64,000 bases of DNA from Odiellus spinosus. Its lineage: Eukaryota > Arthropoda > Arachnida > Opiliones > Phalangiidae. The stretch is from the NCBI GenBank assembly GCA_963920705.1, contig OY987226.1:20493600-20557599 (forward strand), written 5' to 3'. Shown one piece after another: positions 1-48,133 of this stretch. The position numbers were made by a program, and so were the translations under genes. Each line of letters begins with the position of its first letter. The first letter of the stretch is position 1. The notes under the pieces are model-generated. The model saw only the letters and a list, made by a program, of their open reading frames with translations. It was not told where the DNA came from and ran no database searches.

Positions 1-2460
1 TATTTTACAGGGGGTGTATTTTCTATTAGTTATTCTACAGGGGGTGTATTTTTTATTAGTTATTTTACAGGGGGTGTATTTTTAGTTATTTTGCAGGGGG
101 TGTATTTTCTGTTAGTTATTTTGCAGGGGGTGTATTTTCTGTTAGTTATTTTGCAGGGGGTGTATTTTCTGTTAGTTATTTTGCAGGGGGTGTATTTTCT
201 GTTAGTTATTTTGCAGGGGGTGTATTTTCTGTTAGGTATTTTACTGGGGGTGTATTTTCTGTTAGTTATTTTGCTGGGGGTGTATTTTCTGTTAGTTATT
301 TTGCTGGGGGTGTATTTTCTGTTAGTTATTTTGCTGGGGGTGTATTTTCTGTTAGTTATTTTGCTGGGGGTGTATTTTCTGTTAGTTATTTTACAGGGGG
401 TGTATTTTCTGTTAGTTATTTTACAGGGGGAGTATTTTCTATTAGTTATTTTACAGGGGGTGTATTTTCTATTAGTTATTTTACAGGGGGTGTATTTTCT
501 ATTAGTTATTTTACAGGGGGTGTATTTTCTTTTAGTTATTTTACAGGGGGTGTATTTTCTGTTAGTTATTTTACAGGGGGTGTATTTTCTGTTAGTTATT
601 TTGCTGGGGGTGTATTTTCTGTTAGTTATTTTGCTGGGGGTGTATTTTCTGTTAGTTATTTTACAGGGGGTGTATTTTCTGTTAGTTATTTTACAGGGGG
701 AGTATTTTCTATTAGTTATTTTACAGGGGGTGTATTTTCTATTAGTTATTTTACAGGGGGTGTATTTTCTATTAGTTATTTTACAGCGGTGTATTTTCTA
801 TTAGTTATTTTACAGGGGGTGTATTTTCTATCAGTTATTTTACAAGGGGTGTATTTTTTATTAGTTATTTTACAGGGGGTGTATTTTTAGTTATTGAAAG
901 GGGGTGTATTTTCTATTGGTTATTTTACAGGGGGTGTATTTTCTATTGGTTATTTTACAGGGGGTGGATTTTCTGTTAGTTATTTTACAGGGGGTGGATT
1001 TTCTATTAGTTATTTTACAGGGTGTGTATTTTTATTAGTTATTTTACAGGTGTATTTTTAGTTAGTTATTTTGCAGGGGGTGTATTTTCTGTTAGTTATT
1101 TTGCAGGGGGTGTATTTTCTGTTAGTTATTTTGCAGGGGGTGTATTTTCTGTTAGTTATTTTGCAGGGGGTGTATTTTCTGTTAGTTATTTTGCTGGGGG
1201 TGTATTTTCTGTTAGTTATTTTGCTGGGGGTGTATTTTCTGTTAGTTATTTTGCTGGGGGTGTATTTTCTGTTAGTTATTTTGCTGGGGGTGTATTTTCT
1301 GTTAGTTATTTTGCAGGGGGTGTATTTTCTGTTAGTTATTTTGCAGGGGGTGTATTTTCTGTTATTTTGCAGGGGGTGTATTTTCTGTTATTTTGCAGGG
1401 GGTGTATTTTCTGTTATTTTGCAGGGGGTGTATTTTCTGTTATTTTGCAGGGGGTGTATTTTCTGTTATTTTGCAGAGGGTGTATTTTCTGTTATTTTGC
1501 AGGGGGTGTATTTTCTGTTATTTTGCAGGGAGTGTATTTTCTGTTAGTTATTTTGCAGGGGGTGTATTTTCTGTTAGTTATTTTGCAGGATGTGTATTTT
1601 CTGTTAGTTATTTTGCAGGGGGTGTATTTTCTGTTAGTTATTTTGCAGGGGGTGTATTTTCTGTTAGTTATTTTGCAGGGGGTGTATTTTCTGTTAGTTA
1701 TTTTGCAGGGGGTGTATTTTCTGTTAGTTATTTTGCAGGGGGTGTATTTTCTGTTAGTTATTTTGCAGGGGGTGTATTTCTGTTAGTTATTTAGCAGGGG
1801 GTGTATTTTCTGTTAGTTATTTTGCAGGGGGTGTATTTTCTGTTAGTTATTTTGCAGGGGGTGTATTTTCTGTTAGTTATTTTGCAGGGGGTGTATTTTC
1901 TGTTAGTTATTTTGCAGGGGGTGTATTTTCTGTTAGTTATTTTGCAGGGGGTGTATTTTCTGTTAGTTATTTTGCAGGGGGTGTATTTTCTGTTAGTTAT
2001 TTTGCAGGGGGTGTATTTTCTGTTAGTTATTTTGCAGGGGGTGTATTTTCTGTTAGTTATTTTGCAGGGGGTGTATTTTCTGTTAGTTATTTTGCAGGGG
2101 GTGTATTTTCTGTTAGTTATTTTGCAGGGGGTGTATTTTCTGTTAGTTATTTTGCAGGGGGTGTATTTTCTGTTAGTTATTTTGCAGGGGGTGTATTTTC
2201 TGTTAGTTATTTTGCAGGGGGTGTATTTTCTGTTAGTTGTTTTGCAGGGGGTGTATTTTCTGTTAGTTGTTTTGCAGGGGGTGTATTTTCTGTTAGTTGT
2301 TTTGCAGGGGGTGTATTTTCTGTTAGTTGTTTTGCAGGGGGTGTATTTTCTGTTAGTTGTTTTGCAGGGGGTGTATATTCTGTTAGTTATTTTGCTGGGG
2401 GTGTATTTTCTGTTAGTTATTTTACAGGGGGTGTATTTTCTATTAGTTATTTTACAGGGG
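1..2460 (+). repeat. Satellite segment duplicated at 5191-7650 (copy 1)
   Basis: This stretch matches 5191-7650 at an offset of about 5,190 bp, variant unit by variant unit. Shared landmarks include the sequence CAGCGGTG near 785/5975, the GAAAGGGGG unit near 895/6085, the short marker unit at 1022/6212, and the run of units ending TTAGTTGTTTTGCAG at 2221-2360/7381-7520. Copy 1 carries extra short units near 1360-1500, so the offset falls to 5,164 after that point. The match is far too detailed for random satellite similarity, which indicates a recent multi-kilobase duplication within the array. Confidence 0.85.
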
Positions 2461-3060
2461 GTGTATTTTACATTATTTGTTTTACAGGGGGTGTATTTTA
2501 CATTAATTGTTTTACAGGGGGTGTATTTTACATTATTTGTTTTACAGGGGGTGTATTTTACATTATTTGTTTTACAGGGGGTGTATTTTACATTATTTGT
2601 TTTACGGGGGTGTATTTTACATTATTTGTTTTACGGGGGTGTATTTTACATTATTTGTTTTACAGGGGGTGTATTTTACATTATTTGTTTTACAGGGGGT
2701 GTATTTTACATTATTTGTTTTACAGGGGGTGTATTTTACATTATTTGTTTTACAGGGGGTGTATTTTACATTATTTGTTTTACAGGGGGTACATTTTACA
2801 TTATTTGTTTTACAGGGGGTACATTTTACATTATTTGTTTTACAGGGGGTACATTTTACATTATTTGTTTTACAGGGGGTACATTTTACATTATTTGTTT
2901 TACAGGGGGTACATTTTACATTATTTGTTTTACAAGGGGTACATTTTACATTATTTGTTTTACAGGGGGTACATTTTACATTATTTATTTTACAGGGGGT
3001 GCATTTTACATTATTTATTTTACAGGGGGTGCATTTTACATTATTTATTTTACAGGGGGT
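2461..3060 (+). repeat. Private sub-array with TTTTACATTATT unit half
   Basis: About 20 units of 30 bp in which the second half reads TTTTACATTATTTG instead of CTATTAGT. From about 2790 the sequence after the G-run changes from TGTATT to TACATT, and from about 3000 to TGCATT, each in a run of several units. Apart from isolated ACATT units near 7720, 11105, 13750, 23430, 24760, 31740 and 34345, this form is not repeated elsewhere in the window. Confidence 0.9.
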
Positions 3061-3720
3061 GCATTTTCTATTAGTTATTTTACAGGGGGTGTATTTTCTA
3101 TTAGTTACTTTACAGGGGGTGTATTTTCTATTAGTTACTTTACAGGGGGTGTATTTTCTATTAGTTATTTTACAGGGGGTGTATTTTCTATTAGTTATTT
3201 TACAGGGGGTGTATTTTCTATTAGTTATTTTACAGGGGGTGTATTTTTTATTAGTTATTTTACAGGGGGTGTATTTTTTATTAGTTATTTTACAGGGGGT
3301 GTATTTTCTATTAGCTATTTTACAGGGGGTGTATTTATTTTACAGGGGGTGTATTTTCTATTATTTATTTTACAGGGGGTGTATTTTCTATTATTTATTT
3401 TACAGGGGGTGTATTTTTTATTAGTTATTTTACAGGGGGTGTATTTTTTATTAGTTATTTTACAGGGGGTGTATTTTCTATTAGTTATTTTACAGGGGGT
3501 GTATTTATTTTACAGGGGGTGTATTTTCTATTATTTATTTTACAGGGGGTGTATTTTCTATTATTTATTTTACAGGGGTGTATTTTCTATTATTTATTTT
3601 ACAGGGGGTGTATTTTCTATTATTTATTTTACAGGGGGTGTATTTTCTATTATTTATTTTACAGGGGTGTATTTTCTATTATTTATTTTACAGGGGGTGT
3701 ATTTTCTATTATTTATTTTA
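3061..3720 (+). repeat. Standard 30-bp units grading into TTATTTATTTTACAG units
   Basis: Ordinary CTATTAGT units give way to units whose second half is CTATTATTTATTTTACAG. Shortened units (TGTATTTATTTTACAG, about 20 bp) occur near 3330 and 3500. The same mixture returns at 16380-17220, 27770-28610, 38490-39420 and 41735-42950, so this is a recurring sub-block. Confidence 0.85.
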
Positions 3721-4640
3721 CAGGGGGGTGTATTTTACATTATTTATTTTACAGGGGGGTGTATTTTACATTATTTATTTTACAGGGGGGTGTATTTTAC
3801 ATTATTTATTTTACAGGGGGGTGTATTTTACATTATTTATTTTACAGGGGGGTGTATTTTACATTATTTATTTTACAGGGGGGTGTATTTTACATTATTT
3901 ATTTTACAGGGGGGTGTATTTTACATTATTTATTTTACAGGGGGGTGTATTTTACATTATTTATTTTACAGGGGGGTGTATTTTACATTATTTATTTTAC
4001 AGGGGGGTGTATTTTACATTATTTATTTGACAGGGGGGTGTATTTTACATTATTTATTTGACAGGGGGGTGTATTTTACATTATTTATTTGACAGGGGGG
4101 TGTATTTTACATTATTTATTTGACAGGGGGGTGTATTTTACATTATTTATTTGACAGGGGGGTGTATTTTACATTATTTATTTGACAGGGGGGTGTATTT
4201 TACATTATTTATTTGACAGGGGGGTGTATTTTACATTATTTATTTGACAGGGGGGTGTATTTTACATTATTTATTTGACAGGGGGGTGTATTTTACATTA
4301 TTTATTTGACAGGGGGGTGTATTTTACATTATTTATTTGACAGGGGGGTGTATTTTACATTATTTATTTGACAGGGGGGTGTATTTTACATTATTTATTT
4401 GACAGGGGGGTGTATTTTACATTATTTATTTGACAGGGGGGTGTATTTTATATAATTTATTTGACAGGGGGGTGTATTTTACATTATTTATTTGACAGGG
4501 GGGTGTATTTTACATTATTTATTTGACAGGGGGGTGTATTTTACATTATTTATTTGACAGGGGGGTGTATTTTACATTATTTATTTGACAGGGGGGTGTA
4601 TTTTACATTATTTGACAGGGGGGTGTATTTTACATTATTT
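3721..4640 (+). repeat. 31-bp sub-array with six-G run
   Basis: About 30 units with an extra G (GGGGGG) and therefore a 31-bp period. From about 4026 the sequence before the G-run changes from TTTTACAG to TTTGACAG and stays so for roughly 20 consecutive units, all with TTTTACATTATTTATT. The 31-bp period breaks the three-base phase, and forward open frames shift here accordingly. Nearly all units are identical, so this is a recent local amplification of a single mutant unit. Confidence 0.9.
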
Positions 4641-5040
4641 GACAGGGGGTTGTATTTTACATTATTTTACAGGGGGTGCATTTTACATTATTTTTTACAG
4701 GGGGTGCATTTTACATTATTTTTTACAGGGGGTGCATTTTACATTATTTTTTACAGGGGGTGCATTTTACATTATTTTTTTACAGGGGGGTGCATTTTAC
4801 ATTATTTTTTTACAGGGGGTGCATTTTACATTATTTTTTTACAGGGGGTGCATTTTACATTATTTTTTTACAGGGGGTGCATTTTACATTATTTTTTACG
4901 GGGGGTGCATTTCACATTATTTATTTTCCAGGGGGTGTATTTCACATTATTTATTTTCCAGGGGGTGTATTTCACATTATTTATTTTCCAGGGGGTGTAT
5001 TTCACATTATTTATTATCCAGGGGGTGAATTTTACATTAT
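4641..5040 (+). repeat. Short-period and CCAG variant units
   Basis: The period shortens to about 27-30 bp with TTTTTTTACAG spacers and TGCATTTTACATT halves (4641-4910). Then come four units with TTTTCCAG or TATCCAG and TTTCACATT (4911-5035). After 5040 the standard CTGTTAGT and CTATTAGT units resume. These variants are not seen elsewhere in the window. Confidence 0.85.
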
Positions 5041-5190
5041 TTATTTTGCTGGGGGTGTATTTTCTGTTAGTTATTTTACAGGGGGTGTATTTTCTATTAG
5101 TTATTTTACAGGGGGTGTATTTTCTATTAGTTTTTTTACAGGGGTGTATTTTCTATTAGTTATTTTACAGGGGGTTTATTTTCTATTAGT

Positions 5191-7650
5191 TATTTTACAG
5201 GGGGTGTATTTTCTATTAGTTATTCTACAGGGGGTGTATTTTTTATTAGTTATTTTACAGGGGGTGTATTTTTAGTTATTTTGCAGGGGGTGTATTTTCT
5301 GTTAGTTATTTTGCAGGGGGTGTATTTTCTGTTAGTTATTTTGCAGGGGGTGTATTTTCTGTTAGTTATTTTGCAGGGGGTGTATTTTCTGTTAGTTATT
5401 TTGCAGGGGGTGTATTTTCTGTTAGTTATTTTACTGGGGGTGTATTTTCTGTTAGTTATTTTGCTGGGGGTGTATTTTCTGTTAGTTATTTTGCTGGGGG
5501 TGTATTTTCTGTTAGTTATTTTGCTGGGGGTGTATTTTCTGTTAGTTATTTTGCTGGGGGTGTATTTTCTGTTAGTTATTTTACAGGGGGTGTATTTTCT
5601 GTTAGTTATTTTACAGGGGGAGTATTTTCTATTAGTTATTTTACAGGGGGTGTATTTTCTATTAGTTATTTTACAGGGGGTGTATTTTCTATTAGTTATT
5701 TTACAGGGGGTGTATTTTCTTTTAGTTATTTTACAGGGGGTGTATTTTCTGTTAGTTATTTTACAGGGGGTGTATTTTCTGTTAGTTATTTTGCTGGGGG
5801 TGTATTTTCTGTTAGTTATTTTGCTGGGGGTGTATTTTCTGTTAGTTATTTTACAGGGGGTGTATTTTCTGTTAGTTATTTTACAGGGGGAGTATTTTCT
5901 ATTAGTTATTTTACAGGGGGTGTATTTTCTATTAGTTATTTTACAGGGGGTGTATTTTCTATTAGTTATTTTACAGCGGTGTATTTTCTATTAGTTATTT
6001 TACAGGGGGTGTATTTTCTATCAGTTATTTTACAAGGGGTGTATTTTTTATTAGTTATTTTACAGGGGGTGTATTTTTAGTTATTGAAAGGGGGTGTATT
6101 TTCTATTGGTTATTTTACAGGGGGTGTATTTTCTATTGGTTATTTTACAGGGGGTGGATTTTCTGTTAGTTATTTTACAGGGGGTGGATTTTCTATTAGT
6201 TATTTTACAGGGTGTGTATTTTTATTAGTTATTTTACAGGTGTATTTTTAGTTAGTTATTTTGCAGGGGGTGTATTTTCTGTTAGTTATTTTGCAGGGGG
6301 TGTATTTTCTGTTAGTTATTTTGCAGGGGGTGTATTTTCTGTTAGTTATTTTGCAGGGGGTGTATTTTCTGTTAGTTATTTTGCTGGGGGTGTATTTTCT
6401 GTTAGTTATTTTGCTGGGGGTGTATTTTCTGTTAGTTATTTTGCTGGGGGTGTATTTTCTGTTAGTTATTTTGCTGGGGGTGTATTTTCTGTTAGTTATT
6501 TTGCAGGGGGTGTATTTTCTGTTAGTTATTTTGCAGGGGGTGTATTTTCTGTTATTTTGCAGGGGGTGTATTTTCTGTTATTTTGCAGGGGGTGTATTTT
6601 CTGTTATTTTGCAGGGGGTGTATTTTCTGTTATTTTGCAGAGGGTGTATTTTCTGTTATTTTGCAGGGGGTGTATTTTCTGTTATTTTGCAGGGAGTGTA
6701 TTTTCTGTTAGTTATTTTGCAGGGGGTGTATTTTCTGTTAGTTATTTTGCAGGATGTGTATTTTCTGTTAGTTATTTTGCAGGGGGTGTATTTTCTGTTA
6801 GTTATTTTGCAGGGGGTCTATTTTCTGTTAGTTATTTTGCAGGGGGTGTATTTTCTGTTAGTTATTTTGCAGGGGGTGTATTTTCTGTTAGTTATTTTGC
6901 AGGGGGTGTATTTTCTGTTAGTTATTTTGCAGGGGGTGTATTTCTGTTAGTTATTTAGCAGGGGGTGTATTTTCTGTTAGTTATTTTGCAGGGGGTGTAT
7001 TTTCTGTTAGTTATTTTGCAGGGGGTGTATTTTCTGTTAGTTATTTTGCAGGGGGTGTATTTTCTGTTAGTTATTTTGCAGGGGGTGTATTTTCTGTTAG
7101 TTATTTTGCAGGGGGTGTATTTTCTGTTAGTTATTTTGCAGGGGGTGTATTTTCTGTTAGTTATTTTGCAGGGGGTGTATTTTCTGTTAGTTATTTTGCA
7201 GGGGGTGTATTTTCTGTTAGTTATTTTGCAGGGGGTGTATTTTCTGTTAGTTATTTTGCAGGGGGTGTATTTTCTGTTAGTTATTTTGCAGGGGGTGTAT
7301 TTTCTGTTAGTTATTTTGCAGGGGGTGTATTTTCTGTTAGTTATTTTGCAGGGGGTGTATTTTCTGTTAGTTATTTTGCAGGGGGTGTATTTTCTGTTAG
7401 TTGTTTTGCAGGGGGTGTATTTTCTGTTAGTTGTTTTGCAGGGGGTGTATTTTCTGTTAGTTGTTTTGCAGGGGGTGTATTTTCTGTTAGTTGTTTTGCA
7501 GGGGGTGTATTTTCTGTTAGTTGTTTTGCAGGGGGTGTATATTCTGTTAGTTATTTTGCTGGGGGTGTATTTTCTGTTAGTTATTTTACAGGGGGTGTAT
7601 TTTCTATTAGTTATTTTACAGGGGGTGTATTTTCTATTAGTTATTTTACA
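5191..7650 (+). repeat. Satellite segment duplicated from 1-2460 (copy 2)
   Basis: Partner of the segment at 1-2460 (offset about 5,190 bp). It lacks some of the short CTGTTATTTTGCAG units that copy 1 has near 1360-1500. After 7650 it continues into a GGGGGGTG, ACATT and CTTTTAGT block that copy 1 does not have, so the duplication ends near 2460/7650. Confidence 0.85.
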
Positions 7651-8210
7651 GGGGGTGTATTTTCTATTAGTTATTTTACAGGGGGGTGTATTTTCTATTA
7701 GTTATTTTACAGGGGGGTGTATTTTACATTATTTATTTTACAGGGGGTGTATTTTTTATTAGTTATTTTACAGGGGGTGTATTTTTTATTAGTTATTTTA
7801 CAGGGGTAGTATTTTCTATTAGTTATTTTACAGGGGTTGTATTTTCTTTTAGTTATTTTACAGGGGGTGTATTTTCTTTTAGTTATTTTACAGGGGGTGT
7901 ATTTTCTTTTAGTTATTTTACAGGGGGTGTATTTTCTTTTAGTTATTTTACAGGGGGTGTATTTTCTTTTAGTTATTTTACAGGGGGTGTATTTTCTTTT
8001 AGTTATTTTACAGGGGGTGTATTTTCTTTTAGTTATTTTACAGGGGGTGTATTTTCTTTTAGTTGTTTTACAGGGGGTGTATTTTCTATTAGTGATTTTA
8101 CAGGGGGTGTATTTTCTATTAGTTATTTTACAGGGGGTGTATTTCTATTAGTTATTTTAAAGGGGATGCATTTTCTATTAGTTTTTTTACAGGGATGTAT
8201 TTTCTATTAG
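6212..8210 (+). repeat. Higher-order repeat block, copy 1 (about 1.95 kb)
   Basis: Defined by four landmarks in order: (A) a clipped unit CAGGTGTATTTTTAGTTAG at about 6238; (B) a 29-bp unit ending TTATTTAGCAG near 6955; (C) a unit TGTATATTCTGTTAG near 7545; (D) the unit GGGGATGCATTTTCTATTAG near 8162. The same order recurs from 12185, 21942, 30223 and 32801. Confidence 0.85.
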
Positions 8211-8289
8211 TTATTTTACAGGGGGTGTATTTTTTATTAGTTATTTCACAGGGGGTGTATTTTTTATTAGTTATTTTACAGGGGGTGTA

Positions 8290-9890
8290 TTTTTAGTTAT
8301 TTAAAGGGGGTGGATTTTCTATTAGTTATTTTACACGGGGTGTATTTTCTATTAGTTATTTTACAGGGGGTGTATTTTTAGTTATTTAAAGGGGGTGGAT
8401 TTTCTATTAGTTATTTTACACGGGGTGTATTCTCTATTAGTTATTTTTCAGGGGGTGTATTTTCTATTAGTTATTTTTCAGGGGGTGTATTTTCTATTAG
8501 TTATTTTACAAGGGGTGTATTTTCTATTAGTTATTTTCAGGGGTGTATTTTCTATTAGTTATTTTACAGGGGGTGTATTTTCTATTAGTTATTTTACAGG
8601 GGGTGTATTTTCTATTAGTTATTTTACAGGGGGTGTATTTTCTATTAGTTATTTTACAGGGGGTGTATTTTCTATTAGTTATTTTACAGGGGGTGTATTT
8701 TTAGTTATTTTACAGGGGGTGTATTTTCTTTTAGTTATTTTACAGGGGGTGTATTTTCTTTTAGTTATTTTACAGGGGGTGTATTTTCTTTTAGTTATTT
8801 TACAGGGGGTGTATTTTCTATTAGTTATTTTACAGGGGGTGTATTTTCTATTAGCTAATTTACAGGGGGTGTATTTTCTATTAGTTTTTTTACAGGGGTG
8901 TATTTTCTATTAGTTATTTTACAGGGCGTGTATTTTCTTTTAGTTATTTTACAGGGGGTGTATTTTTAGTTATTTAAAGGCGGTGTATTTTCTATTAGTT
9001 GTTTTACAGGGGGTGGATTTTTTATTAGTTATTTTACAGGGGGTGTATTTTTTATTAGTTATTTTACAGGGGGTGTATTTTTTATTAGTTATTTTACAGG
9101 GGGTGTATTTTTTATTAGTTATTTTACAGGGGGTGTATTTTCTGTTAGGTATTTTACAGGGGGTGTATTTTTTATTAGTTATTTTACAGGGGGTGTATTT
9201 TTAGTTATTTTACAGGGGGTGTATTTTCTTTTGGTTATTTTACAGGGGGTGTATTTTCTATTAGCTAATTTACAGGGGGTGTATTTTCTATTAGTTTTTT
9301 TACAGGGGTGAATTTTCTATTAGTTATTTTACAGGGCGTGTATTTTCTTTTAGTTATTTTACAGGGGGTGTATTTTTTATTAGTTATTTTACAGGGGGTG
9401 TATTTTTAATTATTTAAAGGGGGTGTATTTTCTATTAGTTGTTTTACAGGGGGTGTATTTTCTATTAGTTGTTTTACAGGGGGTGTATTTTCTATTAGTT
9501 ATTTTACAGGGGGTGTATTTTCTATTAGTTATTTTACAGGGGGTGTATTTTCTATTAGTTATTTTACAGGGGGTGTATTTTCTATTAGTTATTTTACAGG
9601 GGGTGTATTTTCTATTAGTTATTTTACAGGGGGTGTATTTTCTATTAGTTATTTTACAGGGGGTGTATTTTCTATTAGTTATTTTACAGGGGGTGTATTT
9701 TCTATTAGTTATTTTACAGGGGGTGTATTTTCTATTAGTTATTTTACAGGGGTTGTATTTTTTATTAGTTATTTTACAGGGGGTGTATTTTTGGTTATTT
9801 TACAGGGGGTGTATTTTCTATTAGTTATTCTACAGGGGGTGTATTTTTTATTAGTTATTTTACAGGGGGTGTATTTTTAGTTATTTTGCA
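8290..9890 (+). repeat. Satellite block with GGGCGTG and AGCTAATTTACAG landmarks
   Basis: Between higher-order blocks lies a second block type. It is marked by TTATTTAAAGGGGGTG units, a unit TTAGCTAATTTACAG, a clipped TTTTTTTACAGGGGTG unit and GGGCGTGTATTTTCTTTTAG. Here the series appears twice (near 8850-8960 and 9260-9420). Related blocks lie at 14400-16080, 25430-27720, 34980-37790 and 40480-40720. Confidence 0.8.
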
Positions 9891-11650
9891 GGGGGTGTAT
9901 TTTCTGTTAGTTATTTTGCAGGGGGTGTATTTTCTGTTAGTTATTTTGCAGGGGGTGTATTTTCTGTTAGTTATTTTGCAGGGGGTGTATTTTCTGTTAG
10001 TTATTTTGCAGGGGGTGTATTTCTGTTAGTTATTTAGCAGGGGGTGTATTTTCTGTTAGTTATTTTGCAGGGGGTGTATTTTCTGTTAGTTATTTTGCAG
10101 GGGGTGTATTTTCTGTTAGTTATTTTGCAGGGGGTGTATTTTCTGTTAGTTATTTTGCAGGGGGTGTATTTTCTGTTAGTTATTTTGCAGGGGGTGTATT
10201 TTCTGTTAGTTATTTTGCAGGGGGTGTATTTTCTGTTAGTTATTTTGCAGGGGGTGTATTTTCTGTTAGTTATTTTGCAGGGGGTGTATTTTCTGTTAGT
10301 TATTTTGCAGGGGGTGTATTTTCTGTTAGTTATTTTGCAGGGGGTGTATTTTCTGTTAGTTATTTTGCAGGGGGTGTATTTCTGTTAGTTATTTAGCAGG
10401 GGGTGTATTTTCTGTTAGTTATTTTGCAGGGGGTGTATTTTCTGTTAGTTATTTTGCAGGGGGTGTATTTTCTGTTAGTTATTTTGCAGGGGGTGTATTT
10501 TCTGTTAGTTATTTTGCAGGGGGTGTATTTTCTGTTAGTTATTTTGCAGGGGGTGTATTTTCTGTTAGTTATTTTGCAGGGGGTGTATTTTCTGTTAGTT
10601 ATTTTGCAGGGGGTGTATTTTCTGTTAGTTATTTTGCAGGGGGTGTATTTTCTGTTAGTTATTTTGCAGGGGGTGTATTTTCTGTTAGTTATTTTGCAGG
10701 GGGTGTATTTTCTGTTAGTTATTTTGCAGGGGGTGTATTTTCTGTTAGTTATTTTGCAGGGGGTGTATTTTCTGTTTGTTATTTTGCAGGGGGTGTATTT
10801 TCTGTTAGTTGTTTTGCAGGGGGTGTATTTTCTGTTAGTTGTTTTGCAGGGGGTGTATTTTCTGTTAGTTGTTTTGCAGGGGGTGTATTTTCTGTTAGTT
10901 GTTTTGCAGGGGGTGTATATTATGTTAGTTATTTTGCTGGGGGTGTATTTTCTGTTAGTTATTTTACAGGGGGTGTATTTTCTATTAGTTATTTTACAGG
11001 GGGTGTATTTTCTATTAGTTATTTTACAGGGGGTGTATTTTCTATTAGTTATTTTACAGGGGGGTGTATTTTCTATTAGTTATTTTACAGGGGGGTGTAT
11101 TTTACATTATTTATTTTACAGGGGGTGTATTTTTTATTAGTTATTTTACAGGGGGTGTATTTTTTATTAGTTATTTTACAGGGGTAGTATTTTCTATTAG
11201 TTATTTTACAGGGGTTGTATTTTCTTTTAGTTATTTTACAGGGGGTGTATTTTCTTTTAGTTATTTTACAGGGGGTGTATTTTCTTTTAGTTATTTTACA
11301 GGGGGTGTATTTTCTTTTAGTTATTTTACAGGGGGTGTATTTTCTTTTAGTTATTTTACAGGGGGTGTATTTTCTTTTAGTTATTTTACAGGGGGTGTAT
11401 TTTCTTTTAGTTATTTTACAGGGGGTGTATTTTCTTTTAGTTATTTTACAGGGGGTGTATTTTCTTTTAGTTATTTTACAGGGGGTGTATTTTCTTTTAG
11501 TTGTTTTACAGGGGGTGTATTTTCTATTAGTGATTTTACAGGGGGTGTATTTTCTATTAGTTATTTTACAGGGGGTGTATTTCTATTAGTTATTTTAAAG
11601 GGGATGCATTTTCTATTAGTTTTTTTACAGGGATGTATTTTCTATTAGTT
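9891..11650 (+). repeat. Truncated higher-order block (landmarks B-C-D only)
   Basis: This block starts directly with GCAG units and lacks landmark A. It has landmark B twice (near 10030 and 10390, 360 bp apart), C near 10917 (with a private TATGTTAG change) and D near 11605. The doubled B shows a local 360-bp duplication. The CTTTTAGT run is longer here (about 10 units) than in sister blocks (about 6-8). Confidence 0.8.
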
Positions 11651-12184
11651 ATTTTACAGGGGGTGTATTTTTTATTAGTTATTTCACAGGGGGTGTATTT
11701 TTTATTAGTTATTTTACAGGGGGTGTATTTTTAGTTATTTAAAGGGGGTGGATTTTCTATTAGTTATTTTACACGGGGTGTATTTTCTATTAGTTATTTT
11801 ACAGGGGGTGTATTTTTAGTTATTTAAAGGGGGTGGATTTTCTGTTAGTTATTTTACAGGGGGAGTATTTTCTATTAGTTATTTTACAGGGGGTGTATTT
11901 TCTATTAGTTATTTTACAGGGGGTGTATTTTCTATTAGTTATTTTACAGCGGTGTATTTTCTATTAGTTATTTTACAGGGGGTGTATTTTCTATCAGTTA
12001 TTTTACAAGGGGTGTATTTTTTATTAGTTATTTTACAGGGGGTGTATTTTTAGTTATTGAAAGGGGGTGTATTTTCTATTGGTTATTTTACAGGGGGTGT
12101 ATTTTCTATTGGTTATTTTACAGGGGGTGGATTTTCTGTTAGTTATTTTACAGGGGGTGGATTTTCTATTAGTTATTTTACAGG

Positions 12185-14247: not shown

Positions 14248-14399
14248 TTATTTTACAGGGGGTGTATTTTTTATTAGTTATTTCACAGGGGGTGTATTTT
14301 TTATTAGTTATTTTACAGGGGGTGTATTTTTAGTTATTTAAAGGGGGTGGATTTTCTATTAGTTATTTTACACGGGGTGTATTTTCTATTAGTTATTTT

Positions 14400-16190: not shown

Positions 16191-16379
16191 CAGGGGGGTG
16201 TATTTTCTATTAGTTATTTTACAGGGGGTGTATTTTCTATTAGTTATTTTACAGGGGGTGTATTTTCTATTAGTTATTTTACAGGGGGTGTATTTTCTAT
16301 TAGTTATTTTACAGGGGGTGTATTTTTTATTAGTTATTTTACAGGGGGTGTATTTTCTATTAGTTATTTTACAGGGGGT

Positions 16380-18520: not shown

Positions 18521-18525
18521 TTATT

Positions 18526-27720: not shown

Positions 27721-27726
27721 AAGGGG

Positions 27727-32230: not shown

Positions 32231-32800
32231 TTATTTTACAGGGGGTGTATTTTTTATTAGTTATTTCACAGGGGGTGTATTTTTTATTAGTTATTTTACA
32301 GGGGGTGTATTTTTAGTTATTTAAAGGGGGTGGATTTTCTATTAGTTATTTTACACGGGGTGGATTTTCTATTAGTTATTTTACACGGGGTGTATTTTCT
32401 ATTAGTTATTTTACAGGGGGTGTATTTTCTTTTAGTTATTTTACAGGGGGTGTATTTTCTTTTAGTTATTTTACAGGGGTGTATTTTCTATTAGTTATTT
32501 TACAGGGGGTGTATTTTCTATTAGTTATTTTACAGGGGGTGTATTTTCTATTAGTTATTTTACAGCGGTGTATTTTCTATTAGTTATTTTACAGGGGGTG
32601 TATTTTCTATCAGTTATTTTACAAGGGGTGTATTTTTTATTAGTTATTTTACAGGGGGTGTATTTTTAGTTATTGAAAGGGGGTGTATTTTCTATTGGTT
32701 ATTTTACAGGGGGTGTATTTTCTATTTGTTATTTTACAGGGGGTGGATTTTCTGTTAGTTATTTTACAGGGGGTGGATTTTCTATTAGTTATTTTACAGG

Positions 32801-34808
32801 GTGTGTATTTTTATTAGTTATTTTACAGGTGTATTTTTAGTTAGTTATTTTGCAGGGGGTGTATTTTCTGTTAGTTATTTTGCAGGGGGTGTATTTTCTG
32901 TTAGTTATTTTGCAGGGGGTGTATTTTCTGTTAGTTATTTTGCAGGGGGTGTATTTTCTGTTAGTTATTTTGCTGGGGGTGTATTTTCTGTTAGTTATTT
33001 TGCTGGGGGTGTATTTTCTGTTAGTTATTTTGCTGGGGGTGTATTTTCTGTTAGTTATTTTGCTGGGGTTGTATTTTCTGTTAGTTATTTTGCTGGGGGT
33101 GTATTTTCTGTTGGTTATTTTGCTGGGGGTGTATTTTCTGTTGGTTATTTTGCTGGGGGTGTATTTTCTGTTGGTTATTTTGCTGGGGGTGTATTTTCTG
33201 TTAGTTATTTTGCTGGGGGTGTATTTTCTGTTAGTTATTTTGCAGGGGGTGTATTTTCTGTTAGTTATTTTGCAGGGGGTGTATTTTCTGTTAGTTATTT
33301 TGCAGGGGGTGTATTTTCTGTTATTTTGCAGGGGGTGTATTTTCTGTTATTTTGCAGAGGGTGTATTTTCTGTTATTTTGCAGGGGGTGTATTTTCTGTT
33401 ATTTTGCAGGGAGTGTATTTTCTGTTAGTTATTTTGCAGGGGGTGTATTTTCTGTTAGTTATTTTGCAGGATGTGTATTTTCTGTTAGTTATTTTGCAGG
33501 GGGTGTATTTTCTGTTAGTTATTTTGCAGGGGGTCTATTTTCTGTTAGTTATTTTGCAGGGGGTGTATTTTCTGTTAGTTATTTTGCAGGGGGTGTATAT
33601 TCTGTTAGTTATTTTGCAGGGGGTGTATTTTCTGTTAGTTATTTTGCAGGGGGTGTATTTTCTGTTAGTTATTTTGCAGGGGGTGTATTTCTGTTAGTTA
33701 TTTAGCAGGGGGTGTATTTTCTGTTAGTTATTTTGCAGGGGGTGTATTTTCTGTTAGTTATTTTGCAGGGGGTGTATTTTCTGTTAGTTATTTTGTAGGG
33801 GGTGTATTTTCTGTTAGTTATTTTGCAGGGGGTGTATTTTCTGTTAGTTATTTTGCAGGGGGTGTATTTTCTGTTAGTTATTTTGCAGGGGGTGTATTTT
33901 CTGTTAGTTATTTTGCAGGGGGTGTATTTTCTGTTAGTTATTTTGCAGGGGGTGTATTTTCTGTTAGTTATTTTGCAGGGGGTGTATTTTCTGTTAGTTA
34001 TTTTGCAGGGGGTGTATTTTCTGTTAGTTATTTTGCAGGGGGTGTATTTTCTGTTAGTTGTTTTGCAGGGGGTGTATTTTCTGTTAGTTGTTTTGCAGGG
34101 GGTGTATTTTCTGTTAGTTGTTTTGCAGGGGGTGTATTTTATGTTAGTTGTTTTGCAGGGGGTGTATATTCTGTTAGTTATTTTGCTGGGGGTGTATTTT
34201 CTGTTAGTTATTTTACAGGGGGTGTATTTTCTGTTAGTTATTTTACAGGGGGTGTATTTTCTATTAGTTATTTTACAGGGGGTGTATTTTCTATTAGTTA
34301 TTTTACAGGGGGGTGTATTTTCTATTAGTTATTTTACAGGGGGGTGTATTTTACATTATTTATTTTACAGGGGGTGTATTTTTTATTAGTTATTTTACAG
34401 GGGGGTGTATTTTTTATTAGTTATTTTACAGGGGTAGTATTTTCTATTAGTTATTTTACAGGGGTTGTATTTTCTTTTAGTTATTTTACAGGGGGTGTAT
34501 TTTCTTTTAGTTATTTTACAGGGGGTGTATTTTCTTTTAGTTATTTTACAGGGGGTGTATTTTCTTTTAGTTATTTTACAGGGGGTGTATTTTCTTTTAG
34601 TTATTTTACAGGGGGTGTATTTTCTTTTAGTTATTTTACAGGGGGTGTATTTTCTTTTAGTTGTTTTACAGGGGGTGTATTTTCTATTAGTTATTTTACA
34701 GGGGGTGTATTTTCTATTAGTTATTTTACAGGGGGTGTATTTCTATTAGTTATTTTAAAGGGGATGCATTTTCTATTAGTTTTTTTACAGGGATGTATTT
34801 TCTATTAG
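32801..34808 (+). repeat. Higher-order repeat block, copy 5
   Basis: Landmarks A to D occur at about 32826, 33700, 34166 and 34764. It starts only about 2,578 bp after the previous copy, so copies 4 and 5 are a near tandem pair. Private changes include TTTTGTAGGGGG near 33793 and TATGTTAGTTG near 34140. Confidence 0.85.
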
Positions 34809-36762
34809 TTATTTTACAGGGGGTGTATTTTTTATTAGTTATTTCACAGGGGGTGTATTTTTTATTAGTTATTTTACAGGGGGTGTATTTTTAGTTATTT
34901 AAAGGGGGTGGATTTTCTATTAGTTATTTTACACGGGGTGTATTTTCTATTAGTTATTTTACAGGGGGTGTATTTTTAGTTATTTAAAGGGGGTGGATTT
35001 TCTATTAGTTATTTTACACGGGGTGTATTTTCTATTAGTTATTTTTCAGGGGGTGTATTTTCTATTAGTTATTTTTCAGGGGGTGTATTTTCTATTAGTT
35101 ATTTTTCAGGGGGTGTATTTTCTATTAGTTATTTTACAAGGGGTGTATTTTCTATTAGTTATTTTACAGGGGTGTATTTTCTATTAGTTATTTTACAGGG
35201 GGTGTATTTTCTATTAGTTATTTTACAGGGGGTGTATTTTCTATTAGTTATTTTACAGGGGGTGTATTTTCTATTAGTTATTTTACAGGGGGTGTATTTT
35301 CTATTAGTTATTTTACAGGGGGTGTATTTTCTATTAGTAATTTTACAGGGGGTGTATTTTTAGTTATTTTACAGGGGGTGTATTTTCTTTTAGTTATTTT
35401 ACAGGGGGTGTATTTTCTTTTAGTTATTTTACAGGGGGTGTATTTTCTTTTAGTTATTTTACAGGGGGTGTATTTTCTATTAGTTATTTTACAGGGGGTG
35501 TATTTTCTATTAGCTAATTTACAGGGGGTTTATTTTCTATTAGTTTTTTTACAGGGGTGTATTTTCTATTAGTTATTTTACAGGGCGTGTATTTTCTTTT
35601 AGTTATTTTACAGGGGGTGTATTTTCTTTTAGTTATTTTACAGGGGGTGTATTTTCTTTTAGTTGTTTTACAGGGGGTGTATTTTCTATTAGTTATTTTA
35701 CAGGGGGTGTATTTTCTATTAGTTATTTTACAGGGGGTGTATTTCTATTAGTTATTTTAAAGGGGATGCATTTTCTATTAGTTTTTTTACAGGGATGTAT
35801 TTTCTATTAGTTATTTTACAGGGGGTGTATTTTTTATTAGTTATTTCACAGGGGGTGTATTTTTTATTAGTTATTTTACAGGGGGTGTATTTTTAGTTAT
35901 TTAAAGGGGGTGGATTTTCTATTAGTTATTTTACACGGGGTGTATTTTCTATTAGTTATTTTACAGGGGGTGTATTTTTAGTTATTTAAAGGGGGTGGAT
36001 TTTCTATTAGTTATTTTACACGGGGTGTATTTTCTATTAGTTATTTTTCAGGGGGTGTATTTTCTATTAGTTATTTTTCAGGGGGTGTATTTTCTATTAG
36101 TTATTTTTCAGGGGGTGTATTTTCTATTAGTTATTTTACAAGGGGTGTATTTTCTATTAGTTATTTTACAGGGGTGTATTTTCTATTAGTTATTTTACAG
36201 GGGGTGTATTTTCTATTAGTTATTTTACAGGGGGTGTATTTTCTATTAGTTATTTTACAGGGGGTGTATTTTCTATTAGTTATTTTACAGGGGGTGTATT
36301 TTCTATTAGTTATTTTACAGGGGGTGTATTTTCTATTAGTAATTTTACAGGGGGTGTATTTTTAGTTATTTTACAGGGGGTGTATTTTCTTTTAGTTATT
36401 TTACAGGGGGTGTATTTTCTTTTAGTTATTTTACAGGGGGTGTATTTTCTTTTAGTTATTTTACAGGGGGTGTATTTTCTATTAGTTATTTTACAGGGGG
36501 TGTATTTTCTATTAGCTAATTTACAGGGGGTGTATTTTCTATTAGTTTTTTTACAGGGGTGTATTTTCTATTAGTTATTTTACAGGGCGTGTATTTTCTT
36601 TTAGTTATTTTACAGGGGGTGTATTTTTAGTTATTTAAAGGGGGTGTATTTTCTATTAGTTGTTTTACAGGGGGTGGATTTTTTATTAGTTATTTTACAG
36701 GGGGTGTATTTTTTATTAGTTATTTTACAGGGGGTGTATTTTTTATTAGTTATTTTACAGGG
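34758..36762 (+). repeat. Tandem duplication of a 1,002-bp satellite segment
   Basis: Positions 34993-35572 match 35995-36574 at an offset of exactly 1,002 bp. Shared features include three successive TTATTTTTCAGGGGG units, the ACAAGGGGTG unit, TTAGTAATTTTACAG and TTAGCTAATTTACAG. Landmark D precedes both (about 34764 and 35765). A single GGGGGTTTATT change near 35525 is private to the first copy. Confidence 0.85.
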
Positions 36763-37789
36763 GGTGTATTTTTTATTAGTTATTTTACAGGGGGTGTATT
36801 TTCTATTAGTTATTTTACAGGGGGTGTATTTTCTATTAGTTATTTTACAGGGGGTGTATTTTTTATTAGTTATTTTACAGGGGGTGTATTTTTAGTTATT
36901 TTACAGGGGGTGTATTTTCTTTTGGTTATTTTACAGGGGGTGTATTTTCTATTAGCTAATTTACAGGGGGTGTATTTTCTATTAGTTTTTTTAAAGGGGT
37001 GTATTTTCTATTAGTTATTTTACAGGGCGTGTATTTTCTTTTAGTTATTTTACAGGGGGTGTATTTTTTATTAGTTATTTTACAGGGGGTGTATTTTTAA
37101 TTATTTAAAGGGGGTGTATTTTCTATTAGTTGTTTTACAGGGGGTGTATTTTCTATTAGTTGTTTTACAGGGGGTGTATTTTCTATTAGTTGTTTTACAG
37201 GGGGTGTATTTTCTATTAGTTATTTTACAGGGGGTGTATTTTCTATTAGTTATTTTACAGGGGGTGTATTTTCTATTAGTTATTTTACAGGGGGTGTATT
37301 TTCTATTAGTTATATTACAGGGGGTGTATTTTCTATTAGTTATTTTACAGGGGGTGTATTTTCTATTAGTTATTTTACAGGGGGTGTATTTTCTATTAGT
37401 TATTTTACAGGGGGTGTATTTTCTATTAGTTATTTTACAGGGGGTGTATTTTCTATTAGTTATTTTACAGGGGGTGTATTTTCTATTAGTTATTTTACAG
37501 GGGGTGTATTTTCTATTAGTTATTTTACAGGGGTTGTATTTTTTATTAGTTATTTTACAGGGGGTGTATTTTTGGTTATTTTACAGGGGGTGTATTTTCT
37601 TTTAGTTATTTTACAGGGGGTGTATTTTCTATTAGCTAATTTACAGGGGGTGTATTTTCTATTAGTTTTTTTACAGGGGTGTATTTTCTATTAGTTATTT
37701 TACAGGGCGTGTATTTTCTTTTAGTTATTTTACAGGGGGTGTATTTTTTATTAGTTATTTTACAGGGGGTGTATTTTTAATTATTTAAA

Positions 37790-40700
37790 GGGGGTGTATT
37801 TTCTATTAGTTGTTTTACAGGGGGTGTATTTTCTATTAGTTGTTTTACAGGGGGTGTATTTTCTATTAGTTGTTTTACAGGGGGTGTATTTTCTATTAGT
37901 TGTTTTATAGGGGGTGTATTTTCTATTAGTTGTTTTACAGGGGGTGTATTTTCTATTAGTTGTTTTACAGGGGGTGTATTTTCTATTAGTTGTTTTACAG
38001 GGGGTGTATTTTCTATTAGTTATTTTACAGGGGGTGTATTTTCTATTAGTTATTTTACAGGGGGTGTATTTTCTATTAGTTATTTTACAGGGGGTGTATT
38101 TTCTATTAGTTATTTTACAGGGGGTGTATTTTCTATTAGTTATTTTACAGGGGAGTGTATTTTCTATTAGTTATATTACAGGGGGTGTATTTTCTATTAG
38201 TTGTTTTACAGGGGGTGTATTTTCTATTAGTTATTTTACAGGGGGTGTATTTTCTATTAGTTATTTTACAGGGGGTGTATTTTCTATTAGTTATTTTACA
38301 GGGGGTGTATTTTCTATTAGTTACTTTACAGGGGGTGTATTTTCTATTAGTTATTTTACAGGGGGTGTATTTTCTATTAGTTATTTTACAGGGGGTGTAT
38401 TTTCTATTAGTTATTTTACAGGGGGTGTATTTTTTATTAGTTATTTTACAGGGGGTGTATTTTCTATTAGCTATTTTACAGGGGGTGTATTTATTTTACA
38501 GGGGGTGTATTTTATTTATTTTACAGGGGGTGTATTTTCTATTATTTATTTTACAGGGGGTGTATTTTCTATTAGTTATTTTACAGGGGGTGTATTTTTT
38601 ATTAGTTATTTTACTGGGGGTGTATTTTCTATTAGTTATTTTACAGGGGGTGTATTTATTTTACAGGGGGTGTATTTTCTATTATTTATTTTACAGGGGG
38701 TGTATTTTCTATTATTTATTTTACAGGGGTGTATTTTCTATTATTTATTTTACAGGGGGTGTATTTTCTATTATTTATTTTACAGGGGGTGTATTTTCTA
38801 TTATTTATTTTACAGGGGGTGTATTTTCTATTATTTATTTTACAGGGGGTGTATTTTCTATTAGTTATTTTACAGGGGTTGTATTTTTTATTAGTTATTT
38901 TACAGGGGGTGTATTTTTAGTTATTTTACAGGGGGTGTATTTTCTTTTAGTTATTTTACAGGGGGTGTATTTTTTTTTAGTTATTTTACAGGGGGTATAT
39001 TTTCTATTAGTTATTTTACAGGGGGTATTTTCTATTAGCTAATTTACAGGGGGTGTATTTTCTATTAGTTTTTTTACAGGGGTGTATTTTCTTTTAGTTA
39101 TTTTACAGGGGGTGTATTTTTTATTAGTTATTTTACAGGGGGTGTATTTTTAGTTATTTAAAGGGGGTGTATTTTTTATTAGTTATTTTACAGGGGGTGT
39201 ATTTTTAGTTATTTAAAGGGGGTGTATTTTCTATTATTTATTTTACAGGGGGTGTATTTTCTATTATTTATTTTACAGGGGTGTATTTTCTATTATTTAT
39301 TTTACAGGGGGTGTATTTTCTATTATTTATTTTACAGGGGGTGTATTTTCTATTATTTATTTTACAGGGGGTGTATTTTCTATTATTTATTTTACAGGGG
39401 GTGTATTTTCTATTAGTTATTTTACAGGGGGTGTATTTTTTATTAGTTATTTTACAGGGGTGTATTTTTAGTTATTTTACAGGGGGTGTATTTTCTTTTA
39501 GTTATTTTACAGGGGGTGTATTTTTTTAGTTATTTTACAGGGGGTATATTTTCTATTAGTTATTTTACAGGGGGTATTTTCTATTAGCTAATTTACAGGG
39601 GGTGTATTTTCTATTAGTTTTTTTACAGGGGTGTATTTTCTTTTAGTTATTTTACAGGGGGTGTATTTTTTATTAGTTATTTTACAGGGGGTGTATTTTT
39701 AGTTATTTAAAGGGGGTGTATTTTCTATTAGTTGTTTTACAGGGGGTGTATTTTTTATTAGTTATTTTACAGGGGGTGTATTTTTTATTAGTTATTTTAC
39801 AGGGGTTGTATTTTCTATTAGTTATTTTACAGGGGGTGTATTTTCTTTTAGTTATTTTACAGGGGGTGTATTTTCTTTTAGTTATTTTACAGGGGGTGTA
39901 TTTTCTTTTAGTTATTTTACAGGGGGTGTATTTTCTATTAGTTATTTTACAGGGGGTGTATTTTCTATTAGTTATTTTACAGGGGGTGTATTTTCTATTA
40001 GTTATTTTAAAGGGGGTGCATTTTCTATTAGTTTTTTTACAGGGGTGTATTTTCTATTAGTTATTTTACAGGGGGTGTATTTTTTATTAGTTATTTTACA
40101 GGGGGTGTATTTTTTATTAGTTATTTTACAGGGGGTGTATTTTTAGTTATTTAAAGGGGGTGGATTTTCTATTAGTTATTTTACACGGGGTGTATTTTCT
40201 ATTAGTTATTTTACAGGGGGTGTATTTTCTATTAGTTATTTTACAGGGGGTGTATTTTCTATTAGTTATTTTATTGGGGGTGTATTTTCTATTAGTTATT
40301 TTACAGGGGGTGTATTTTCTATTAGTTATTTTACAGGGGGTGTATTTTCTATTAGTTATTTTACAGGGGTTGTATTTTTTATTAGTTATTTTACAGGGGG
40401 TGTATTTTTGTTATTTTACAGGGGGTGTATTTTCTTTTAGTTATTTTACTGGGGGTGTATTTTCTATTAGCTAATTTACAGGGGGTGTATTTTCTATTAG
40501 TTTTTTTACAGGGGTGTATTTTCTATTAGTTATTTTACAGGGCGTGTATTTTCTTTTAGTTATTTTACAGGGGGTGTATTTTTTATTAGTTATTTTACAG
40601 GGGGTGTATTTTTAATTTTTTAAAGGGGGTGTATTTTCTATTAGTTGTTTTACAGGGGGTGTATTTTCTATTAGTTGTTTTACAGGGGGTGTATTTTTAA

Positions 40701-42950
40701 TTATTTAAAGGGGGTGTATTTTCTATTAGTTGTTTTACAGGGGGTGTATTTTCTATTAGTTGTTTTACAGGGGGTGTATTTTCTATTAGTTATTTTACAG
40801 GGGGTGTATTTTCTATTAGTTATTTTACAGGGGGTGTATTTTCTATTAGTTATTTTACAGGGGGTGTATTTTCTATTAGTTATTTTACAGGGGGTGTATT
40901 TTCTATTAGTTATTTTACAGGGGGTGTATTTTCTATTAGTTATTTTACAGGGGGTGTATTTTCTATTAGTTGTTTTACAGGGGGTGTATTTTCTATTAGT
41001 TATTTTACAGGGGGTGTATTTTCTATTAGTTATTTTACAGGGGGTGTATTTTCTATTAGTTATTTTACAGGGGGTGTATTTTCTATTAGTTATTTTACAG
41101 GGGGTGTATTTTCTATTAGTTATTTTACAGGGGGTGTATTTTCTATTAGTTATTTTAAAGGGGGGTGTATTTTCTATTAGTTGTTTTACAGGGGGTGTAT
41201 TTTCTATTAGTTATTTTACAGGGGGTGTATTTTCTATTAGTTATTTTACAGGGGGTGTATTTTCTATTAGTTATTTTACAGGGGGTGTATTTTCTATTAG
41301 TTATTTTACAGGGGGTGTATTTTCTATTAGTTATTTTAAAGGGGGGTGTATTTTCTATTAGTTATTTTACAGGTGGTGTATTTTCTATTAGTTATTTTAC
41401 AGGGGGTGTATTTTCTATTAGTTATTTTACAGGGGGTGTATTTTCTATTAGTTATTTTACAGGGGGTGTATTTTCTATTAGTTATTTTACATTGGGTGTA
41501 TTTTCTATTAGTTATTTTACAGGGGGTGTATTTTCTATTAGTTATTTTACAGGGGGTGTATTTTCTATTAGTTATTTTACAGGGGGTGTATTTTCTATTA
41601 GTTATTTTACAGGGGGTGTATTTTCTATTAGTTATTTTACAGGGGTGTATTTTCTATTAGTTATTTTACAGGGGGTGTATTTTTTATTAGTTATTTTACA
41701 GGGGGTGTATTTTCTATTAGCTATTTTACAGGGGGTGTATTTATTTTACAGGGGGTGTATTTTCTATTATTTATTTTACAGGGGGTGTATTTTCTATTAT
41801 TTATTTTACAGGGGGTGTATTTTCTATTAGTTATTTTACAGGGGGTGTATTTTCTATTAGTTATTTTACAGGGGGTGTATTTTTTATTAGTTATTTTACA
41901 GGGGGTGTATTTTCTATTAGTTATTTTACAGGGGGTGTATTTATTTTAAAGGGGGTGTATTTTCTATTATTTATTTTACAGGGGGTGTATTTTCTATTAT
42001 TTATTTTACAGGGGGTGTATTTTCTATTATTTATTTTACAGGGGGTGTATTTTCTATTATTTATTTTACAGGGGGTGTATTTTCTATTTATTTTACAGGG
42101 GGTGTATTTTCTATTATTTATTTTACAGGGGGTGTATTTTCTATTATTTATTTTACAGGGGGTGTATTTTCTATTAGTTATTTTACAGGGGTTGTATTTT
42201 TTATTAGTTATTTTACAGGGGGTGTATTTTCTTTTAGTTATTTTACAGGGGGTGTATTTTTTTTAGTTATTTTACAGGGGGTGTATTTTCTATTAGTTTT
42301 TTTACAGGGGGTGTATTTTCTATTAGCTAATTTACAGGGGGTGTATTTTCTATTAGTTTTTTTACAGGGGTGTATTTTCTTTTTGTTATTTTACAGGGGG
42401 TGTATTTTTTATTAGTTATTTTACAGGGGGTGTATTTTTTATTAGTTATTTTACAGGGGGTGTATTTATTTTACATAGGGTGTATTTTCTATTATTTATT
42501 TTACAGGGGGTGTATTTTCTATTATTTATTTTACAGGGGGTGTATTTTCTATTAGTTATTTTACAGGGTGTGTATTTTCTATTAGTTATTTTACAGGGGG
42601 TGTATTTTCTATTAGTTATTTTACAGGGGGTGTATTTTCTATTAGTTATTTTACAGGGGGTGTATTTTTTATTAGTTATTTTACAGGGGGTGTATTTCCT
42701 ATTAGTTATTTTACAGGGGGTGTATTTATTTTACAGGGGGTGTATTTTCTATTATTTATTTTACAGTGGGTGTATTTTCTATTATTTATTTTACAGGGGT
42801 GTATTTTCTATTATTTATTTTACAGGGGGTGTATTTTCTATTATTTATTTTACAGGGGGTGTATTTTCTTTTATTTATTTTACAGGGGGTGTATTTTCTA
42901 TTATTTATTTTACAGGGGGTGTATTTTCTATTATTTATTTTACATGGGGT
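37790..42950 (+). repeat. Right part of the main array, TTATTT-rich
   Basis: No higher-order landmark A-D set occurs here apart from a weak D-like GGGGGTGCATTTTC unit near 40014. Long runs of near-identical CTATTAGT units (40770-41650) alternate with TTATTTATTTTACAG groups (38490-38850, 39222-39410, 41735-42150, 42470-42950). The region ends where ACATGGGGTGTACCCC introduces the palindromic zone. Confidence 0.8.
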
Positions 42951-48131: not shown

Positions 48132-48133
48132 TA

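What the first reader, a model, noticed from the sequence alone, without database searches (positions are those of the whole stretch)
1..42950. At least 43 kb of a G+T-rich 30-bp satellite with several layers of order
The array is uninterrupted and one-directional, and shows order on four scales: the 30-bp unit, runs of like variants, blocks of 1.0-2.0 kb and a 5.19-kb duplication. Such resolved higher-order structure with a unit this short is uncommon. If it is centromeric or pericentromeric it could be functional, but nothing in the sequence shows that.
Basis: partly seen in the sequence, partly recalled or inferred. Interest (0 to 1): 0.72.

Follow-up and report, generated by a model that had tools for sequence, protein, structure and literature searches.

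The report
Harvestman satellite grown around palindromes
A 55-kb stretch of a 30-letter DNA repeat in a harvestman genome is real and neatly layered, and looks like a local expansion of a non-coding repeat family scattered over the chromosomes rather than a centromere.

Summary
Window 1-42953 is an uninterrupted one-directional 30-bp array with ordered variants, kb-scale blocks and a 5.2-kb tandem duplication. The array starts 12.5 kb before the window: 55,483 bp, about 1,876 units.

The array belongs to a family found on at least nine contigs: 29,552 exact copies of a 20-bp core and 3,753 of a related palindrome, at 16 or more places in the first 6.7 Mb of chromosome 1. Three unit types are private to this locus (258 of 258, 227 of 227, 80 of 80 exact genome copies). 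In the 9 two-armed loci that surfaced, the main arms converge.

Best reading: non-coding satellite whose unit, resembling half of the palindrome, expands in place by slippage, unequal exchange and segmental duplication; the palindrome as seed is inferred. A centromeric role is not supported: the family lies at many places per chromosome, and harvestmen are usually monocentric. Coding is rejected by frame-breaking unit lengths. Foldback-transposon ancestry stays open: converging arms fit, but no shared element ends were found at three loci.

The parts
1..42953 (+). Main 30-bp satellite array (right-hand 77% of a 55,483-bp array that starts 12.5 kb upstream of the window)
   Evidence: TRF; unit anchors; upstream part in L010 and L011
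1..2453 (+). In-window part of copy A of the 5.2-kb tandem duplication (copy A begins at -2767)
2454..7617 (+). Copy B of the 5.2-kb tandem duplication
   Evidence: 171 of 174 units identical
29835..32412 (+). First copy of a 2.55-kb tandem duplication
   Evidence: 78 of 84 units identical, 0.24% mismatch
32413..34960 (+). Second copy of the 2.55-kb tandem duplication
34585..36531 (+). Block repeated at lag 1,002 bp (945 bp exact)
42954..43565 (+). Transition zone: palindromes ACAAGGGGTACCCCTTGT mixed with forward units of an AT-rich type also seen at other loci
   Evidence: sequence; TRF; orientation string
43566..46830 (-). Reversed arm: units pointing the other way, interleaved with palindromes
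   Evidence: GC skew flips; 71 reversed cores
46205..46401 (.). Tandem run of palindromes (43-bp period); single strand folds to a strong hairpin
   Evidence: fold z = -8.5 for 46250-46340
46837..46874 (+). Left arm of a 38-bp inverted repeat flanking the 20-bp array
   Evidence: a 34-bp piece of it occurs only as this pair in the genome at up to 3 mismatches
46872..48088 (-). 20-bp array TTCGAAAAATACGACGCCCC x 60.7, 99% matches, its exact dimer found only at this locus; C-rich on +, so it points like the reversed arm
48094..48131 (-). Right arm of the inverted repeat flanking the 20-bp array

Best explanation
It is a non-coding satellite array, one locus of a genome-wide family of short-unit tandem repeats in the harvestman Odiellus spinosus. 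Shown: the family has two related modules, a directional unit of about 30 bp (core TTTTACAGGGGGTGTATTT) and a palindrome (TTTACAAGGGGTACCCCTTGTAAA); arrays lie at many places on at least nine contigs; three unit types tested here are private to the locus; the array carries duplications from single units to at least 5.2 kb; the main arms of the two-armed loci that surfaced converge. Inferred: short palindromic copies act as seeds, which their hairpin makes prone to slippage and template switching; one half is copied in tandem, which gives forward units on the left and reversed units on the right; once an array exists, slippage and unequal exchange spread new variants locally and larger segmental duplications create the kb-scale order. 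No host function is needed to explain it.
For: Array and order above shuffles. Family dispersal: 11,838 + 17,714 exact 20-mers, 3,753 exact palindromes, hits on C1, C2, C3, C6, C7, C8, C12, C13 and C15. Privacy: 258 of 258, 227 of 227 and 80 of 80 exact genome copies of three unit types lie in this array (counted). Unit and palindrome are related: circular local alignment 15 against a mean of 8.4 for letter shuffles, 0 of 300 as good. Converging main arms in the 9 two-armed loci that surfaced. At C3:16.23 the arms join without spacer in a perfect palindrome of at least 80 bp made of whole units, as fold-back copying would leave. Two palindrome stretches fold strongly (z -8.5 and -5.7); one 90-base stretch of the array does not, on either strand (z 0.1 and 0.2). 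Coding rejected: of 467 units not 30 bp long, only 38 have a length divisible by 3.
Against: The seed step is not shown: at C3:16.23, C12:20.91 and C6:4.96 the arms meet without a copy of the GGGGTACCCC palindrome. Counter-oriented bits exist on a small scale: single reversed units beside palindromes before the forward arm at C1:0.187, C1:7.52 and C3; forward units beside palindromes, several times, towards the right end of C2:32.71; <2 >7 inside C12 and one forward unit at its right end; one forward unit inside the reversed arm of C3. The left 22-bp arrays next to this locus are not detectably related to the unit. How copies reached so many places is unexplained.
Confidence: 0.72

Rival explanations
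1. The arrays are the overgrown inverted arms of a foldback-type DNA transposon family, whose terminal repeats are made of short tandem units; the element jumped around the genome and its arms then expanded into satellites.
For: Converging arms made of tandem units, palindromes in the middle and at edges, dispersal over many loci. The Tetris element shows such a route in Drosophila virilis (PMC4079207, abstract and passages).
Against: No shared unique ends were found outside the arrays at three loci. C1:0.187: no match between the flanks. Window locus: one 26-bp inverted match, which lies in the arm of a small inverted-repeat element. C1:17.04: five short inverted matches of 23-35 bp about 1 kb outside, all on a TTAGG-like motif repeated in the right flank. 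The inverted repeat around the 20-bp array exists only once. No transposase was looked for.
Confidence: 0.25
2. The array is (part of) the centromere or pericentromere of chromosome 2.
For: Long homogeneous satellite with block order; interior position, 20.5 of 34.5 Mb.
Against: Family present at several places on C2 itself (0.61, 3.3, 6.2, 9.4, 20.5, 32.7, 33.2 and 33.4 Mb) and on eight other contigs; harvestmen usually have monocentric chromosomes. Sequence without long tandem arrays begins 1.3 kb to the left and 5.2 kb to the right of the array, with some more short arrays further out. The locus-private units mean that no single unit type could mark all centromeres.
Confidence: 0.05
3. The higher-order pattern is an assembly artefact.
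For: Raw reads could not be inspected.
Against: No N in the 94 kb held; longest exact repeat 1.9 kb against mean HiFi reads of about 11.4 kb at about 54-fold coverage; near-copies still differ at informative units.
Confidence: 0.04
4. The array codes for a repetitive protein; the 30-bp unit reads as a 10-residue repeat in one frame.
For: Long open frames, up to 765 aa at 1795-4092.
Against: Open frames follow from a unit length divisible by 3; 429 of 467 unit-length variants shift the frame.
Confidence: 0.01

Closest known systems
Tetris foldback transposon and its TIR-220 satellite, Drosophila virilis (PMC4079207; abstract and passages seen)
   Same: Tandem units inside inverted arms; units also form longer arrays; many loci
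   Different: 220-bp unit with defined flanking domains and target-site duplications; repeats there do not group by contig, whereas three unit types tested here are private to the locus; no element ends found here
Scattered satellite DNAs of the oyster Crassostrea gigas (PMC8268682; abstract and passages seen)
   Same: Tandem-repeat arrays scattered across the genome without accumulation at one kind of site
   Different: There 9 of 11 inspected satellites are mostly carried by mobile elements (Helitrons) and arrays are short; here a 30-bp unit, palindromes and a 55-kb array
Higher-order-repeat satellites such as primate alpha satellite (recalled)
   Same: Multi-unit blocks repeated with high identity
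   Different: Here the blocks are irregular in length (1.0, 1.2, 1.4, 2.6, 5.2 kb) and the family is not confined to one site per chromosome
Drosophila FB foldback elements with short tandem units in inverted repeats (recalled, not tested)
   Same: Short tandem units in converging arms
   Different: No unique ends or target-site duplication shown here; far larger

Membership tests
Satellite DNA (non-coding tandem array) | Long head-to-tail array of near-identical units | tested here: met
   55,483 bp, about 1,876 units
Satellite DNA (non-coding tandem array) | No protein-coding constraint | tested here: met
   38 of 467 non-30-bp units keep the frame
Higher-order-repeat satellite | Multi-unit blocks repeated as units, beyond chance | tested here: met
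   Run-preserving shuffles; block alignments. Blocks are irregular, not one fixed period
Centromeric satellite | One major site per chromosome in a monocentric species | tested here: not met
   Many sites on C1 and C2; harvestmen usually monocentric
Centromeric satellite | CENH3 nucleosomes | not testable with these tools
   No ChIP data
Foldback transposon | Long inverted arms built of tandem units | tested here: met
   Converging main arms in the 9 two-armed loci that surfaced
Foldback transposon | Shared unique termini in inverted orientation | tested here: not met
   Not found at three loci (window, C1:0.187, C1:17.04); the short matches seen are a small inverted-repeat element and a TTAGG-like motif; other loci not tested
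Foldback transposon | Target-site duplication | tested here: inconclusive
   Flanks were compared only by BLAST, which cannot see a short duplication
Foldback transposon | Related transposase in the genome | not tested
   No transposase family was searched
Helitron-associated satellite | Helitron end boxes beside the array | not tested
   No Helitron end model was used

The most novel reading that the evidence does not exclude
A class of satellite that spreads and grows from a palindromic seed: dispersed short palindromes are copied to new places, each half then expands only on its own side, so every mature locus is a pair of converging arms with locus-private units. Arms would then keep a fixed strand polarity towards the centre, perhaps because expansion depends on replication direction through a cruciform-prone centre.
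Probability: 0.22. Interest if true: 0.68.

Novelty: new variant of a known kind. Interest (0 to 1): 0.42.

Why it matters
Satellites are usually met only after they have become huge and uniform. Here one genome holds what look like the stages side by side: palindrome clusters, short mixed arrays, two-armed loci, and a 55-kb array with readable duplication history. That makes the birth, spread and local takeover of a satellite testable by comparing loci within one assembly and between harvestman species.

Tried and rejected
Structured RNA: no Rfam family at gathering score in the window. Coding array: rejected by unit lengths. The 20-bp array as a dispersed mobile element: rejected, since a 34-bp piece of its inverted repeat (up to 3 mismatches) and the exact dimer of its unit occur only here. 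Viral source of the palindrome: no exact 22-mer match in the viral collection, which says little. Chemoreceptor-like frame against sequences of solved structures: no match up to E = 1. Five other flank frames (of six sent) had no Pfam family. Relation of the left 22-bp arrays, the 17-bp array and one AT-rich array to the 30-bp unit: no better than shuffles; the 18-bp unit and the right 20-bp unit do better than nearly all shuffles (0-1 of 300 as good), the 22-bp form less clearly (13 of 300) and the GC variant of the 18-bp unit not clearly (45 of 300). These units are short, so I treat all but the palindrome and the 18-bp unit as leads. One continuous 240-kb locus at C2:33.20-33.45 Mb: not decided; one search scored only 1 of 629 candidates and showed only the right part.
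Full report
What was checked. The window lies at G000:C2:20493600-20557599 in a genome of 443,074,358 bases in 286 contigs. Lengths of six contigs (C1 35.43, C2 34.49, C3 29.37, C6 24.91, C12 23.73, C13 20.48 Mb) agree with chromosomes 1, 2, 3, 6, 10 and 11 in Table 3 of the genome note on the harvestman Odiellus spinosus (PMC11503004; passages and outline seen; found). TTAGG telomere repeats occur near the right end of C1, from 35,430,304 on as far as the capped list goes.

The array. TRF calls a 30-bp array over 1-42467 and on to 42953. It continues to the left for 12.5 kb, to C2:20481070, where it abuts a 22-bp array of 58 copies. In all it is 55,483 bp and about 1,876 units with 185 distinct sequences; anchor spacing is never above 31 bp. 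The left end is an exact 31-bp run of about 1,490 bp; the right edge, read by eye, passes gradually into an AT-rich unit type seen at other loci.

Order. Neighbouring identical units: 779 of 1,874 against 82.2 on average in 200 shuffles. Shuffling whole runs instead, ten-unit words that recur drop from 672 to 4.8 on average, and twenty-unit words from 324 to 0. Local alignment of unit strings (14 best, then stopped) gives a 5.2-kb tandem pair (0.06% mismatch), a 2.55-kb tandem pair (0.24%) and twelve further pairs of 2-13 kb at lags of 1.4-26.6 kb (0.19-1.55%). Blocks at 1,002, 1,203 and 1,364 bp are local to about 23.9-36.5 kb. This is the pattern of repeated segmental duplication of different sizes, not of one fixed higher-order unit.

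Beyond the array. From 42954 the sequence mixes palindromes ACAAGGGGTACCCCTTGT with forward units, and from 43566 to 46830 the units point the other way, again with palindromes; GC skew changes sign in the same kilobase. Next comes a 20-bp array (46872-48088) inside a 38-bp inverted repeat; a 34-bp piece of that repeat occurs nowhere else in the genome at up to three mismatches.

The family. The exact 20-mer TTTTACAGGGGGTGTATTTT occurs 11,838 times on one strand and 17,714 on the other, against 0 for the reversed control; this locus holds 705 of the 29,552, so most copies lie elsewhere. The exact 24-bp palindrome occurs 3,753 times. The two lists, which show only the first 100 places each, name at least 16 separate places in the first 6.7 Mb of C1 (my count, places 50 kb or more apart). 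DNA searches add C2, C3, C6, C7, C8, C12, C13 and C15. By contrast three unit types of this array are private: 258 of 258, 227 of 227 and 80 of 80 exact genome copies lie here (counted in the held sequence). A unit type taken from C13:8.65, on the other hand, has matches of 90% and more on C2, C3, C7, C8, C12 and C15, so not every type is private to its locus.

Grammar. Writing forward units as >, reversed units as < and palindromes as P shows the make-up of each held locus, for example P2 >60 P7 <12 P2 <13 at C1:0.187. Loci with two main arms: C2:20.5 (this one), C1:0.187, C1:17.04, C3:16.23, C12:20.91 and C6:4.96, C1:0.458, C8:15.66, and an 18-bp relative at C1:19.956/19.981, whose arms are 24 kb apart with the stretch between unseen. 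All nine run > then <. If arm order were a coin toss this has a chance of 1 in 512. The nine were not sampled at random: they are those that surfaced in my searches, and the lists were capped. Other held loci show one main direction only. Exceptions on a small scale are listed under evidence against. Between the arms lie palindromes at this locus, C1:0.187, C1:17.04 and C1:0.458; at C3 the two arms join without spacer as a perfect palindrome of whole units, and at C12 and C6 they join over a short spacer. A palindrome is itself a forward half followed by a reversed half, so a palindromic seed whose halves expand would give this order without any further rule. That step is inference.

Relations among units. 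The 30-bp unit and the palindrome share TTTTACA(A/G)GGGGT, above all of 300 letter shuffles. An 18-bp unit (TTTTATTTTCAAGGGGTG), found beside the 30-bp arrays at C3 and, as variants, at C12, C13 and C2:3.33, is related as well; the right-hand 20-bp unit scores above nearly all shuffles; the left 22-bp units do not.

Function. Nothing points to a host role. No Rfam match, no coding constraint, no single-strand structure in the one stretch of the 30-bp array folded (z near 0), strong hairpins in two palindrome stretches. A centromeric role would need one site per chromosome in a group reported as usually monocentric (PMC5904373, passage); the family has many sites on C1 and C2. This specific array as the chromosome-2 centromere is not excluded by sequence, only unlikely.

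Literature. Searches for Opiliones with satellite DNA, harvestman with tandem repeat and genome, Opiliones with heterochromatin and Phalangium opilio with genome assembly listed nothing that by title or abstract start describes such repeats; only open-licence papers are held. Foldback-derived and scattered satellites are known elsewhere, and reviews of dispersed satellites appeared in a further listing (listing only).

Verdict. It is a dispersed, non-coding satellite family, undescribed as far as these searches go, whose two-armed, palindrome-rich loci are a variant on known themes. The most interesting part is not the length of this array but the family grammar.

Noticed in passing
57727-59019, + strand: Open frame of 431 aa with a weak match to the 7tm chemosensory receptor family 7tm_7 (PF08395, 23.2 bits, below its cut-off 26.6); no solved relative found.
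   Followed up: partly
48132-48429: Small inverted-repeat element of about 300 bp (arms 48132-48181 and 48380-48429); a 26-bp piece of its arm matches the left flank at L010:594-619, so it may be dispersed.
   Followed up: partly
49753-50013: Another short tandem array, 17/34-bp period (AGAGCGCTTTCTCCAAA), not detectably related to the main unit.
   Followed up: no
L010:3396-4420 and L010:6182-7468: Two further 22-bp arrays, 99% matches, just upstream of the satellite; the second abuts it directly.
   Followed up: no
about C1:17042823-17051119 (L017/L018): LTR retrotransposon inserted in an array of the family; terminal repeats 98.8% identical over the 250 bp aligned, which suggests a recent insertion.
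   Followed up: no
C1:17060960-17061460 (L019): A 500-bp stretch directly right of the C1:17.04 array is an imperfect palindrome (87% over 517 aligned bases).
   Followed up: no
C2:33204000-33213000 and C2:33443000-33456000: Two palindrome-rich arrays of the same type pointing at each other 240 kb apart; they could be the arms of one very large locus.
   Followed up: partly
L044, about C1:187177-187455: An inverted-repeat element (ends GGCTGGGAAATAAGG / CTTATTTCCCAGCC) sits inside a palindrome copy at the left edge of the C1:0.187 locus.
   Followed up: no
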